From Synergistaceae bacterium (GTDB lineage: Bacteria > Synergistota > Synergistia > Synergistales > Aminobacteriaceae), in assembly GCA_017448795.1 (NCBI GenBank), contig JAFSKV010000026.1:1-36510 (forward strand): a stretch of 36,510 nt of DNA, written 5' to 3'. Positions within the stretch are counted from its first letter, which is position 1, and the number at the start of each line of letters is the position of its first letter. The notes under the pieces were generated by a model that had not been told where the DNA came from, did not search any database, and saw nothing but the letters and a program-made list of their open reading frames with translations. Both the position numbers and the translations under genes were made by a program. Below are positions 1 to 31,767 of this stretch, piece by piece.

Positions 1-1
1 C

Positions 2-1039
2 CGCCCTTCACGTCCCGGCATCACATACATCAAGGGCAGCGCGAAAGATACCGGCTTCATACGCGGCGTACTCGCACAATCTGAATGGGACGCTGTGGTT
101 GACTTCATGGCCTACTCCACTGACGAGTTCAGGCGGCGCGCAGAATTGATGCTGTCAGGCACAAGGCAGTACGTCTTCATCAGCTCGGCAAGGGTCTACG
201 CGAAATCTGATGTCCCAATCACGGAAGAGACACCCAGACTCCTCGACGTATCACAGGATTCCGAGTACCTGAAGACCGACGAATACGCCCTCGCAAAAGC
301 CAGGCAGGAAGACATCCTCACGTCATCAGCAAAAGGCAACTGGACAATCATCCGTCCTAGCATCACGTACAACGACACGCGGCTTCAGCTTGGAGTGCTG
401 GAGAAGGAAGGCGTGTTCTACAGGGCACTTCACGGACGCAGTATCGTGTTCTCGCGCGACATTGCCGACAAGATTACTACCATGACATGGGGGCATGACG
501 CGGCAGAAGGAATCGCATCAATCATCGGCCAGCCCGGCGCATTGGGGCAGGTCTTCCACATAACAGAGCGCAACGCCTACAAGTGGCAGGAAATCCTTGA
601 CGTTTATCTTGATGTCCTCGCCGAGAAAACAGGACGCAGGCCCAATGTCATAATGACAGATAAGGCAGTCAGCTTCATGGCCGGCAACAAGTACCAGATA
701 ATATATTGCCGCTACTTCAACAGACGGTTCGACAGCTCCAAGATCTCACGCTTCATTGACACTTCACGCTTTGTTGACGCTAAGGAAGGACTCAGGAAGT
801 GCTTGGCCAAATTCCTCAAAGCCCCCAAGTTCGGAAGCATCAGCTGGAAACTAGAGGCCCTCAACGATAAGGCAGCAGGCGAAAATACTCCCCTCAAGGA
901 AATTCTAGGCTTGAAGTCAAAGGCTGTCTACATTCTCTGCCGCCACAACATGGCATTTGCAGTAAATATCGCAGGAAAGGTGAAATCAATCATGAAGAAA
1001 ATACGTAATATTACTCTTGCGGGGGGGGGGGGCAAGTAA
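2..1039 (+). CDS. NAD-dependent epimerase/dehydratase (extended SDR), 5'-truncated
   Basis: The reading frame is already open at base 2 and upstream of the first ATG at 95, so the true start and the N-terminal Rossmann glycine motif lie outside the window. What remains resembles extended short-chain dehydrogenases that act on nucleotide sugars: a 'FISSARVYA' strand-turn and a YxxxK catalytic pair in 'EYALAK', with the YLKTDEY context usual in glycan-locus epimerases. The substrate cannot be told from sequence. The C-terminal third (from about base 650) is not obviously SDR-like. The frame stops just after a run of 12 G, encoding a terminal Ala-Gly4-Lys. One base fewer in that run would read straight into the next gene. 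Family call is firm; specificity is unknown. Confidence 0.8.
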   Translation, partial: RPSRPGITYIKGSAKDTGFIRGVLAQSEWDAVVDFMAYSTDEFRRRAELMLSGTRQYVFISSARVYAKSDVPITEETPRLLDVSQDSEYLKTDEYALAKARQEDILTSSAKGNWTIIRPSITYNDTRLQLGVLEKEGVFYRALHGRSIVFSRDIADKITTMTWGHDAAEGIASIIGQPGALGQVFHITERNAYKWQEILDVYLDVLAEKTGRRPNVIMTDKAVSFMAGNKYQIIYCRYFNRRFDSSKISRFIDTSRFVDAKEGLRKCLAKFLKAPKFGSISWKLEALNDKAAGENTPLKEILGLKSKAVYILCRHNMAFAVNIAGKVKSIMKKIRNITLAGGGGK

Positions 1040-1841
1040 ACCGCTGATACTGGGAAGCGGAGTGTCCTCACCGAAAACTTACGGCGAACTCAAGCCCGTA
1101 ATATTCTCCGCTCTGAAGGAGGGCATTAACCGTTTCGACACAGCACCAAGCTACGGGACTGAAAGTGTTATAGGCGAGGTTCTGAAGTCTGCTGAGAATG
1201 AGCTGGGACTGTCGCGCAAAGATTACTGGCTTCAGACAAAGATAGACGCGTGGCAGATGATGGACGGCAATATCAGGAAACACTTTGATGATGCCCTCGC
1301 GAAATTCAGGACGGAATACGTTGATGCGCTTCTTGTTCACTGGCCTGTGCCTGAGAAAATAAATGACACATGGACTCAGATTGCAGGCCTCAAATCCTCC
1401 GGGCTGGTGAGATTCACCGGGATATGCAACGTCAGGATGAGGCAGCTTGAAAGCATTGCAGGCTTGGACGAGATGCCCGACATAATCCAGATTGAGCGGA
1501 GCCCCCTGCGTGTTTGTGCTGACGAGGAAGATTTCTGCCGCAGGAATGGCATTGAGCTTCAGGCATATTCCCCGCTGTGCAAGATGAATCACAGGCTGAG
1601 AGACAGTGCAGTTCTCCGCGACATAGCCGCCAAGCACGGAGTCAGTATAGGCCAGGCCGTGATGAGGTGGCATGTTGAGACTGGAGCAGTTCCGATTTTC
1701 GCCACGACAAAGCCCGAAAGAGTCAGGGAATATTCAGCCGTTACGGATTTCAGCCTTGATGACGCGGACATAGCCGGGATTTCCTCGCTCGACTGCAACC
1801 ACAAGATGTACCTGGAATCCTTCGCTTGTCCTGGATTCTAA
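1017..1841 (+). CDS. Aldo/keto reductase family protein
   Basis: A NAD(P)H-dependent (beta/alpha)8-barrel oxidoreductase. The first strand is seen as 'KPLILGSG'. All four AKR catalytic residues are present in order: Asp and Tyr in 'RFDTAPSYG', Lys in 'LQTKID', His in 'LLVHWP'. Length (274 aa) is normal for bacterial AKRs. The only start that keeps the complete barrel in the present sequence is TTG at 1017, inside the upstream gene and directly before the 12-G run. No Shine-Dalgarno sequence is visible there, so translation may depend on coupling with, or fusion to, the epimerase. Position after an epimerase suggests a sugar or deoxysugar modification role, but no substrate can be assigned. 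Confidence 0.82.
   Translation: MRGGGASKPLILGSGVSSPKTYGELKPVIFSALKEGINRFDTAPSYGTESVIGEVLKSAENELGLSRKDYWLQTKIDAWQMMDGNIRKHFDDALAKFRTEYVDALLVHWPVPEKINDTWTQIAGLKSSGLVRFTGICNVRMRQLESIAGLDEMPDIIQIERSPLRVCADEEDFCRRNGIELQAYSPLCKMNHRLRDSAVLRDIAAKHGVSIGQAVMRWHVETGAVPIFATTKPERVREYSAVTDFSLDDADIAGISSLDCNHKMYLESFACPGF
1021..1032 (+). repeat. 12-base G homopolymer at a gene junction
   Basis: Twelve consecutive G, the longest homopolymer seen in the window, sit across the 3' end of the epimerase and the 5' end of the aldo/keto reductase. With 12 G the upstream frame ends at TAA 1037-1039. With 11 or 14 G it would continue as Ala-Gly-Gly-Gly-Ala-Ser-Lys into the reductase. Tracts this long are prone to slipped-strand change, and also to sequencing error. 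Confidence 0.9.
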
Positions 1842-6444: not shown

Positions 6445-7005
6445 TTATGCCGCTTTGTCCGTGAAGTCCTTCAACTGCTTGTAGTAGCCTAATGTTTCAT
6501 CCGTTGCAGTTCTTCCCTCTTCCTTCATGGCACTGATACAGCCCTCAAACCTGCCAAGAAGAGTAAATGCTTTCTTTGCGAGTGCTTTAGCCTGATCCCT
6601 CTGAAGCCTGTAGCTTTCAATCTCGCTTTTGAGCGTGGCTATTTGTGTGAAAAAGTCTTTTGCCTGACTCCTGAGTTTTGCCTCATACTCGCGTGATGCC
6701 TTGCTGTAACCTTCCTTTATGCCCTCTGTCCTCTCATTGTCCAGCATCGCGCCAGTAATCCCCGCCGCAACAAACAGACCGCCGCCCCAAGCCACAACAT
6801 TCGCAACCGTTATTCCCCCAATGAGTACAGTACCCCCTATCGCCGAAGCCGCCGCCAACGCTGAAGCACCTAATCCCGCCACAGCCGCACCAGCCGCCGC
6901 AGCTCCAGCCGCAACCGCTCCTCCTACAGCCGCCGCCGTTGTAGCAACAGTAGTCCCGGCCGCCGCAATCGCACCGCCTATTGTCGCAAGCAATGTGAAT
7001 ATCAT
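6445..7005 (-). CDS. Gly/Ala-rich membrane protein with coiled-coil tail (first gene of a two-gene module)
   Basis: A 186-aa protein with a striking composition. Residues 1-85 are almost entirely Ala, Gly, Thr and Val with small-xxx-small spacing ('AVGGAVAAGAAAAGAAVAG'), like glycine-zipper membrane segments. Another hydrophobic stretch ('VANVVAWGGGLFVAAGITG') follows. From about residue 88 it is charged and helical (EGYSKASREYEAKLRSQAKDF), a likely coiled coil. There is no cleavable signal peptide of normal form. The ribosome site is strong (GGAGGGG, 6 bp before ATG). I do not recognise a family. Glycine zippers occur in pore-forming or oligomerising membrane proteins, which makes membrane permeabilisation a possible role. 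Its upstream region contains a run of 10 C in the coding orientation. Confidence 0.65.
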   Translation of the reverse strand: MIFTLLATIGGAIAAAGTTVATTAAAVGGAVAAGAAAAGAAVAGLGASALAAASAIGGTVLIGGITVANVVAWGGGLFVAAGITGAMLDNERTEGIKEGYSKASREYEAKLRSQAKDFFTQIATLKSEIESYRLQRDQAKALAKKAFTLLGRFEGCISAMKEEGRTATDETLGYYKQLKDFTDKAA

Positions 7006-7044: not shown

Positions 7045-7050
7045 ATTCTA
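7045..7050 (-). promoter_or_regulatory. Candidate -10 box of the two-gene module
   Basis: TAGAAT (5 of 6 to TATAAT) on the minus strand lies 39 bp before the start at 7005. No consensus -35 sits 17 bp upstream, because that position falls in the homopolymer. TACTGT (7079-7074) is 23 bp upstream. Losing about six bases from the tract would bring it to normal spacing. Confidence 0.35.
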
Positions 7051-7093
7051 TACGTAATTCACGGGGGGGGGGTACAGTATATTTACCGATATA
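7048..7093 (+). repeat. Split copy of the CTATACGTAAT / TTTACCGATATA element
   Basis: CTATACGTAAT (7048-7058) and TTTACCGATATA (7082-7093) flank 23 nt that contain the 10-G run. The same two blocks are directly adjacent at 31743-31765. The right block overlaps the stop codon and last codons of the GH3-GH13 gene. A third, more diverged copy with ATACGTAAT and a 12-G run lies at 1001-1043. Confidence 0.7.
7063..7072. repeat. 10-base G/C homopolymer in the 77-bp gap between two genes
   Basis: Ten consecutive G on the plus strand (C on the coding strand of the flanking minus genes) lie between the stop of the glycosidase (7083) and the start of the Gly/Ala-rich gene (7005). It is the second longest homopolymer in the window and sits where a -35 element would be expected for the downstream module. 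Confidence 0.85.
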
Positions 7094-29854: not shown

Positions 29855-31420
29855 CTAGAAGCTGACTGATGTCCTGAACCTGACTACGTTGTCCTCGCGG
29901 CTTGCTGCACCGTCAAGGTCGTTGTCCGCGTGCATGTAGTTGAGTCCGAACGTTGTCGCGTCGTTGTACTTGTACTGAATGCCTGCGCCGAACTCTGTAG
30001 GCTTCCTTCCGCCCAGAACGTCAACATCATAGCCGTAGTAGAACAGGTAGGTCGCCCACTGATCCGTCCACTGCTGGCCGAGACCGACTCTCCAGTACTT
30101 CGTGTCCGCGATTGCGATGCCCGCGCCGTACTCTTCCTGAAGAAGCCCGCCGTAGAACAGGAAACCGCCGTTAAGTGCGCTGAAACCTGCATCATACTGG
30201 CCGTACTCAAGCCACAGGCTGGTGAACTTCAGAGCATCCTGCTTCACGTCAATGATTGCTGACCAGTGGTTAGCGTCAGTCGTGTTGCTCGCGTCAGCCC
30301 AGTAATGCCTTCTGTTGGCCGCGTCATAAGCCACAACTTCCTCGTCCCATGCCTGATGATAAAACGTACCCTTGAGTGCGATCGCGTCTGTGAAGTTGAA
30401 GCGAAGCCCCGCGTAAATCGTCCAGAGGTTGTTGAACGCGCTGTCTGCTCCGTTGGCGTCAACGATGTGCTCGCCCCTTGCGTTGAGGTGGTCATATGTC
30501 TCCGCGTTGTCGCCGATGAACGCCTGGCCTCCGATGTCGAACCCTACGCGCTCTGTGAACTGGAACGTGCCTCTTGCCATGATCATCCAGTCTTCCCAGC
30601 CGAACTGGTCAGGATGCGCCGCCATAATCTGGGCTGTGCCAAGTCCGAAGTTCTTTGTCAGACCCATTCCCTGCCATGTCCAGTCTGTGAGGATCTGGTC
30701 TCCGTCCCAGCCGCCTGTCATCGGAAGGGAAATCTTGTAGTCGCCTTCCCATGCCCAGTTCTGACGGCCGACGAGAAGCCTTGTGTCCATGAAGAACGGC
30801 ATCTCAACATAGAACCTGTCAAAGTACGCGCTCTGAGTGTTCTTGTTTCCGCCGCTGGTGTCGCCCTCGTTCCTGAGCCTTGCGCGGAAGAAGTACTCAT
30901 CATTCTCGCCCCATGTGCGCTCGAAGAACAGCCTCGCTTCGTCGAATTTCACTGACCCCTTTCCGTCAGCTGTGAAAGCATCTCCTGCGTCATTCCTGCT
31001 CTCGTTCATGACATCAAGCACCAACGTGCCGTGAATGTGCCATCCGCCGAGCCTGCTCTCAAGAACAGCTACCCTCTCGTCAAGCTCATCAACGCGTACA
31101 CCGAGTGCCTCAAGCTCGTCCTTGAACTCGACAACGAGTCTCTTGAGCATCTCAACGTCCTGCTTGCTTGCCTTTGTCATGTCAACGACTGCGAGTGCTC
31201 TGGCCAGTGCTGAAGCCATCTCATAACGTGTTGTCTGCTGCTTGCCCTTGTAGAGGCCATCGGGATAACCCGAAAGGATTCCGTGTGCCGCAAGCTGACC
31301 GATCGCGTCATATGCCCAGTGGTTCATCGGCACGTCCATGAACGGATTTGTCGCTGAAAACGCCGGGGCCGCAAGTGCTGCTACTGCTGCAATAGCTACT
31401 AATGCTGCTATCTTTCTCAT
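29855..31420 (-). CDS. SLH-domain outer-membrane porin
   Basis: A 521-aa protein with a signal peptide (MRKIAALVAIAAVAALAAPAFSA), one SLH domain at about residues 24-78 ('NPFMDVPMNHWAYDAIGQLAAHGILSGYPDG' region), a heptad coiled coil at about 83-125 ('LEALGVRVDELDERVAVLESRL') and a beta-barrel of alternating aromatic strands to the end. The last residue is Phe in 'VRFRTSVSF', the usual signal for barrel assembly. This SLH-coiled coil-barrel layout is that of OmpM/SlpA-type porins in diderm Firmicutes, Synergistota and Thermus-Deinococcus, where SLH tethers the outer membrane to peptidoglycan polymers. Codon use looks that of a highly expressed gene. It has its own terminator and a long leader. 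Confidence 0.92.
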   Translation of the reverse strand: MRKIAALVAIAAVAALAAPAFSATNPFMDVPMNHWAYDAIGQLAAHGILSGYPDGLYKGKQQTTRYEMASALARALAVVDMTKASKQDVEMLKRLVVEFKDELEALGVRVDELDERVAVLESRLGGWHIHGTLVLDVMNESRNDAGDAFTADGKGSVKFDEARLFFERTWGENDEYFFRARLRNEGDTSGGNKNTQSAYFDRFYVEMPFFMDTRLLVGRQNWAWEGDYKISLPMTGGWDGDQILTDWTWQGMGLTKNFGLGTAQIMAAHPDQFGWEDWMIMARGTFQFTERVGFDIGGQAFIGDNAETYDHLNARGEHIVDANGADSAFNNLWTIYAGLRFNFTDAIALKGTFYHQAWDEEVVAYDAANRRHYWADASNTTDANHWSAIIDVKQDALKFTSLWLEYGQYDAGFSALNGGFLFYGGLLQEEYGAGIAIADTKYWRVGLGQQWTDQWATYLFYYGYDVDVLGGRKPTEFGAGIQYKYNDATTFGLNYMHADNDLDGAASREDNVVRFRTSVSF

Positions 31421-31738: not shown

Positions 31739-31767
31739 TTGCCTATACGTAATTTTACCGATATAAT
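31739..31767 (+). promoter_or_regulatory. Sigma70-type promoter-like sequence pointing into vapC (antisense)
   Basis: TTGCCT, exactly 17 bp, then TATAAT. This is the best-spaced promoter match I noticed in the window. It reads rightward into the 3' end of the minus-strand vapC and precedes no plausible plus-strand gene. Confidence 0.45.
31743..31765 (+). repeat. Contiguous copy of the CTATACGTAAT / TTTACCGATATA element
   Basis: CTATACGTAAT (31743-31753) is directly followed by TTTACCGATATA (31754-31765). At 7048-7093 the same 23 bases are split by a 23-nt insert with a G run. This copy has no G run and overlaps the promoter-like sequence. Confidence 0.7.

What the first reader, a model, noticed from the sequence alone, without database searches (positions are those of the whole stretch)
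7048..7093. A small dispersed element that can carry a long G run between two conserved blocks
Seen directly: CTATACGTAAT and TTTACCGATATA are adjacent at 31743-31765 (23 nt). At 7048-7093 the same 23 nt are split by 23 nt that include G10. At 1001-1043 ATACGTAAT is followed by G12 and then a diverged ACCG right side. ATACGTAAT occurs only at these three places by my reading, and two of them are beside the two longest G runs in the window, all in the same orientation. I infer a mini-repeat family existing in 'empty' and 'G-run' forms, possibly a mobile or slippage-generating cassette. I know of no named element of this form.
Basis: partly seen in the sequence, partly recalled or inferred. Interest (0 to 1): 0.85.

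Follow-up and report, generated by a model that had tools for sequence, protein, structure and literature searches.

The report
Poly-G switch sites with shared motif
Bacteria of one Synergistaceae genus (rumen and oral metagenome genomes, Fretibacterium-like) carry up to about 58 long runs of the letter G, mostly inside unrelated cell-surface genes where they probably switch the gene on and off, and these runs have a short conserved DNA sign about 13 letters upstream that ordinary G-run switches are not known to have.

Summary
The window is contig C8 of a Synergistaceae MAG. Its genome has 26 G-runs of 10 or more (3.5-9 expected by chance); congeners have 0-58. They lie mostly on the coding strand, inside unrelated glycosyltransferase, envelope and lipoprotein genes. 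One third are in frame. Run length differs between orthologues (G12/G13; C8-C13). I read them as poly-G phase-variation (contingency) loci.

The new part is the flank. A motif T(A/C)(A/C)GTAAWW lies about 9-18 nt upstream of the run. The strict form occurs in 34 of 118 unrelated protein clusters against 0.3 expected. It appears in two codon phases and in non-coding runs, and is essentially absent from G5-G7 runs.

The literal pair CTATACGTAAT/TTTACCGATATA exists only twice, in this genome alone. The 'empty form' at 31743 is not an emptied cassette but a conserved site upstream of an S-layer-homology gene, with no G-run in any orthologue examined. No target-site duplication or inverted repeat was found; in one gene family the run replaces native sequence of similar length. 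Verdict: a new variant of a known kind; the motif's function is unknown.

The parts
7048..7093 (+). Poly-G element in the intergenic gap upstream of gene 6445-7005(-): left flank with motif, G10, right flank
   Evidence: syntenic orthologous sites with C13, C11, C10 and C8 in G057, G009, G044 and G011
7051..7062 (+). Upstream motif TACGTAATTCAC (consensus TMMGTAAWWYWM); its reverse complement AATTACGTATAnnAT reads as a -10-like region for gene 6445-7005(-) (inference)
7063..7072 (+). G10 homopolymer (C10 on the strand of gene 6445-7005)
   Evidence: length varies between species
1002..1014 (+). Upstream motif TACGTAATATTAC
   Evidence: identical in G047
1021..1032 (+). G12 homopolymer between the upstream open frame (95-1018) and the aldo/keto reductase frame (1035 on); the frames join only if n mod 3 = 2, so G12 is off
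   Evidence: G13 in the orthologue in G047
95..1018 (+). Open frame upstream of the G12 run (weak NAD(P)H-binding similarity, below the Pfam cut-off)
1035..1841 (+). Aldo/keto reductase frame downstream of the G12 run
   Evidence: PF00248, 1.3e-35
6445..7005 (-). Gene of unknown function (no Pfam match) whose upstream region carries the C10/G10 run
31743..31765 (.). The 'empty form': in fact a conserved site (CCGTAAAATTACGTATAGG type) 5' of the promoter-like region of the SLH gene; no G-run in any orthologue examined
29855..31420 (-). S-layer-homology (SLH) domain protein gene with a long conserved leader

Best explanation
The G-runs are contingency loci. Slipped-strand replication errors change the length of a G10-G16 tract, moving a downstream reading frame in or out of register (most loci) or changing promoter geometry (window 7048), so that cell-surface genes switch reversibly between on and off. 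In this genus the tract is accompanied by a cis motif, T(A/C)(A/C)GTAAWW, whose GTAA lies about 9-18 nt 5' of the G-run, and by TA-rich sequence 3' of the run that stops translation soon in the wrong frames. SHOWN: the enrichment of long runs, the motif, its independence of gene family and reading frame, different lengths in orthologues, random phase states, and off-frame stops. INFERRED: that switching occurs in living cells. PROPOSED, less sure: that the motif is under selection because it acts on the DNA, either by binding a protein or by easing local melting, and so sets or protects the instability of the tract.
For: Run excess. Host genes: 92 of 106 runs assigned to a gene have G on the coding strand. 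Host proteins match 78 Pfam families, most often GT2, GT1, short-chain dehydrogenases, FkbM, radical SAM, CotH, MBOAT, LicD, GT92 and capsule synthesis. Phase: 22 of 66 runs in frame, the one third expected of free slippage. Length changes: G12/G13 in a 108-nt otherwise identical stretch against 86.5% identity overall; C8-C13 at the 7048 orthologues. Motif: EM finds TMMGTAAWWYWM in 117 of 165 flanks, mostly ending 3-8 nt before the run. Strict form in 34 of 118 unrelated clusters against 0.27 at random positions, in 13 clusters at codon phase 1 and 8 at phase 0, and in 15 of 38 runs lacking a host frame. 47 of 154 strict motif sites stand within 20 nt of a G10+ run against 0 of 97 for the reversed motif. 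GTAAW-N4-14-G10 matches in the genus: 375 against 37 for the reversed pattern (tally). Off-frame stops within 8 codons in 70% and 62% of frames against 54% and 49% after codon shuffling.
Against: No reads or cultures were available, so length heterogeneity within a population is not shown. The genomes are MAGs and homopolymer lengths may be off by a base. The motif is degenerate and about 29% of flanks score poorly. G008's few runs lack it. No trans-acting factor was identified. The 375 and 37 matches count long tracts more than once. A second identical stretch (141 nt at the contig start) weakens the argument from local conservation.
Confidence: 0.72

Rival explanations
1. A mobile mini-cassette: a 25-50 nt element (motif + G-run + TA-rich tail) is copied into genes, creating new phase-variable loci.
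For: Near-identical flanks in unrelated genes and different codon frames, e.g. TACGTAATTCAC-G10-TA in G000 and G004 and GTAATTCAC-G in RGIG1612 and oral Fretibacterium, and TTACTCTTGC-type flanks in five G000 genes. The GT1 gene has 6 residues including the run that are absent from its G049 orthologue.
Against: No direct or inverted repeats beyond permuted pairs. Upstream and downstream flanks are not co-inherited. In MBOAT the run replaces native sequence of about the same length. No motif sites with G4-G9 beyond one G4 and one G6. Several sites are conserved orthologously between species.
Confidence: 0.15
2. Convergent selection without any trans factor: flanks are driven TA-rich to supply off-frame stops and low duplex stability, and the motif is a by-product of codon and stop constraints.
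For: Off-frame stops are enriched downstream; flanks are TA-rich.
Against: The upstream motif is the strongest signal, yet an upstream off-frame stop does nothing for translation. It occurs in two codon phases and in non-coding runs, with a preferred spacing.
Confidence: 0.25
3. One reading: one CTATACGTAAT/TTTACCGATATA mini-repeat with empty and filled forms.
For: A 23-nt split identity between 7048 and 31743.
Against: The pair occurs nowhere else in 43 genomes. 31743 is a conserved SLH upstream site, with no G-run in any orthologue examined.
Confidence: 0.03
4. Assembly or sequencing artefact (two-colour poly-G).
For: A few very long G runs at contig ends look like this (L103, L142).
Against: The runs lie inside contigs, on either genome strand, at orthologous places in independent assemblies, with a specific upstream motif.
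Confidence: 0.02

Closest known systems
Poly-G/poly-C contingency loci of Campylobacter (phasome; PMC6321876, PMC4965091)
   Same: Dozens of G/C homopolymers of 7 or more, mainly in surface-structure genes, translational or promoter phase variation by slippage. C. jejuni NCTC11168 has 29 such loci (PMC4965091).
   Different: Unrelated phylum. A shared cis motif upstream of the tract is, to my knowledge and in the papers searched, not described there. Here short runs (5-7) lack the motif.
Homopolymer phase variation in Helicobacter canadensis (PMC2823697)
   Same: Homopolymers associated with coding regions, giving potential transcriptional or translational switching (abstract).
   Different: No shared flanking motif mentioned in the abstract shown; the full text was not read.
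Promoter homopolymers (spacer-length switches, e.g. Neisseria, Treponema; general knowledge)
   Same: At 7048 the C-run sits just upstream of a -10-like AATTACGTATAnnAT, conserved in position in 5 species with differing length.
   Different: The same motif is used at coding tracts in other genes.

Membership tests
Simple-sequence-repeat (poly-G) contingency loci | Homopolymer longer and more frequent than chance | tested here: met
   26 observed against 3.5-9 expected in G000; 0-58 in congeners
Simple-sequence-repeat (poly-G) contingency loci | Tract within a reading frame or promoter so that length changes alter expression | tested here: met
   position within frames shown; promoter position inferred; effect on expression not measured
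Simple-sequence-repeat (poly-G) contingency loci | Host genes mostly surface structures | tested here: met
Simple-sequence-repeat (poly-G) contingency loci | Tract length variable between related genomes | tested here: met
   G12/G13; C8-C13
Simple-sequence-repeat (poly-G) contingency loci | Reversible high-frequency switching within a population | not testable with these tools
   no reads or cultures
Mobile mini-element (MITE/REP-like) | Target-site duplication or terminal inverted repeats | tested here: not met
Mobile mini-element (MITE/REP-like) | Orthologous sites without the element, same flanks, clean empty site | tested here: inconclusive
   GT1: 6 residues longer than the G049 orthologue; MBOAT: replacement without insertion; no close strain pair available

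The most novel reading that the evidence does not exclude
The genus has a dedicated hypermutation system: a factor recognises TMMGTAAWW and acts 9-18 nt downstream to create, lengthen or keep unstable a G-run, so that phase-variable loci are specified by a cis code rather than arising passively.
Probability: 0.2. Interest if true: 0.9.

Novelty: new variant of a known kind. Interest (0 to 1): 0.62.

Why it matters
Poly-G phase variation appears not to have been described in Synergistaceae: no paper in the searched library held both sets of terms. If confirmed, a rumen and oral genus with up to about 58 candidate switch loci would have one of the larger phasomes known. A cis motif tied to long tracts, independent of gene and frame, is unexpected under passive slippage. 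It makes a concrete question testable: do bacteria mark which homopolymers are to be unstable?

Tried and rejected
(1) Literal two-block family: only 2 sites in 43 genomes. (2) 'Empty site': rejected after aligning SLH upstream regions. (3) Target-site duplications and inverted repeats across the run: none beyond permuted pairs. (4) Rfam: no match in the window. (5) Paralogy as the cause of shared flanks: rejected, 34 of 118 unrelated clusters carry the strict motif. (6) Protein-level constraint: the motif is used in two codon phases and in non-coding runs. (7) Composition alone: reversed-motif and random-position controls. (9) Literature on Synergistes, Synergistaceae or Fretibacterium phase variation: no papers; queries on flanking motifs gave nothing relevant.

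Full report
WHAT WAS CHECKED. The window is contig C8 of a 2.54-Mb genome in 86 contigs. Congeners found by pattern scan are titled Synergistaceae MAGs from goat rumen, reticulum and abomasum, and uncultured Fretibacterium; for example, the RGIG3476 contigs match G004.

THE LITERAL FAMILY DOES NOT EXIST. TACGTAAT followed within 30 nt by TTACCGATATA occurs twice, both in this window, and in none of the 42 other genomes of the genus. ATACGTAAT occurs 8 times genome-wide; three are beside G-runs of 10 or more (1001, 7050 and C36:4178).

THE 'EMPTY FORM' IS A CONSERVED S-LAYER UPSTREAM SITE. The gene 29855-31420(-) has an S-layer-homology domain. Aligning upstream regions of its orthologues shows (A)TCCGTAAAATTACGTATAGG at about -305 to -346 in most species, 5' of a conserved promoter-like TTGTAATATATGCACCG and a long leader, without a G-run in any. 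In L301, L302 and L305 the dyad GTAA-NN-TTAC is in the opposite orientation. The 23-nt identity with 7048 is therefore best read as a shared upstream motif, not an excised cassette.

THE G-RUNS ARE THE REAL FAMILY. G000 has 26 runs of 10 or more G against 3.5-8.9 expected from Markov models of order 1-3. Congeners have 0-58. In genomes sampled from other families of the order the count is 0-5, mostly 0-2. The run-length histogram of the window falls smoothly to G8 and then has isolated G10 and G12. Of 106 runs assignable to a gene, 92 have G on the coding strand. Host proteins match 78 Pfam families, dominated by glycosyltransferases and other envelope enzymes. Where both sides of the frame are visible, 22 of 66 are in frame, exactly a third. 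Off-frame stops come early after the run: median 2 and 8 codons against 5 and 20 inside the same genes, and still enriched against codon shuffles of the same stretch.

LENGTH CHANGES BETWEEN SPECIES. The 1021-1032 G12 run is G13 in G047, inside 108 nt that are otherwise identical while the 2.4-kb region is 86.5% identical; another identical stretch of 141 nt lies at the contig start, so the conservation argument is suggestive only. With G12 the upstream frame stops at 1037-1039; it would join the aldo/keto reductase frame at n mod 3 = 2. The 7063-7072 run lies at the syntenic place in four other species as C13, C11, C10 and C8, just upstream of AATTACGTATAnnAT, a -10-like sequence for gene 6445-7005(-). 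I infer a promoter-type switch there and a frame-type switch at 1021.

THE MOTIF. k-mer counts per genome first showed TACGTA, TTACTC, AATTAC and GTAATT in the upstream 30 nt. An expectation-maximisation search on 165 flanks from many species gives TMMGTAAWWYWM in 117, ending mostly 3-8 nt before the run. One run per unrelated protein cluster: 34.3 of 118 have the strict form T[AC][AC]GTAA[AT] in the upstream 22 nt; random positions give 0.27. It is read in two codon phases (13 and 8 clusters; the third would put TAA in frame) and occurs at 15 of 38 runs with no host frame. It is tied to long runs: 47 of 154 strict sites in 414 kb stand within 20 nt 5' of a G10+ run, one beside a G6, none beside G7-G9, and 0 of 97 reversed-motif sites do. 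G5-G7 runs lack TACGTA upstream (1 of 283). Genus-wide, GTAAW-N4-14-G10 gives 375 matches against 37 for the reversed pattern, with few in 140 other genomes of the order. A 19-hit scan of 84,980 species with GTAATTYAC-N0-4-G10 has 10 hits in Synergistaceae.

INSERTION OR NOT. A GT1 gene (L056) is 6 residues longer at the run than its G049 orthologue. In MBOAT genes, G000, G009 and G023 have the run where G045 has ordinary sequence of about the same length. There are no direct or inverted repeats across the run beyond permuted pairs, and groups sharing an upstream flank do not share the downstream flank. I conclude that tracts arise and persist in place at least sometimes; a copying mechanism is possible but not shown.

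HOW IT PROBABLY WORKS. Slippage in the G tract is established biology for other bacteria (general knowledge; PMC6321876 passages). What the motif does is open: protein binding, local melting, or a by-product of other constraints. The positional preference, independence of frame and absence at short runs favour a DNA-level function.

LIMITS. No reads, no cultures; MAG homopolymers may be off by a base; a few poly-G contig ends look like sequencing artefacts (L103, L142). The motif was found on the same set on which it was first counted, though the reversed-pattern controls and the genus-wide pattern count do not depend on the EM fit. Campylobacter-type outside controls were not available. The literature search covers only open-licence papers.

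Noticed in passing
window 29855-31420(-); G049 C42, G021 C13, G004 C3: Some congeners have two divergently oriented SLH genes next to each other, and the conserved upstream dyad is reversed in L301, L302 and L305: possible S-layer gene switching.
   Followed up: no
L380 (G000 C53, about 19590): A G7 run with TTACGTACA on the left and CAAAACTACGTA on the right inside a probable coding region; possibly a contracted tract. The right flank is identical to that of the G12 run in L024.
   Followed up: partly
G124, G135 (family f4 of the same order): 6 and 5 GTAAW..G10 matches outside the genus; not examined.
   Followed up: no
L148, L149 (G008), L070 (G006): G-runs inside what look like signal-peptide coding regions of secreted proteins, without the motif: a second, different context in the genus.
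   Followed up: no
window 1-141 and G047 C134:1-141: Two species' contigs begin at the same place with 141 identical bases, suggesting a repeat at this contig boundary.
   Followed up: no
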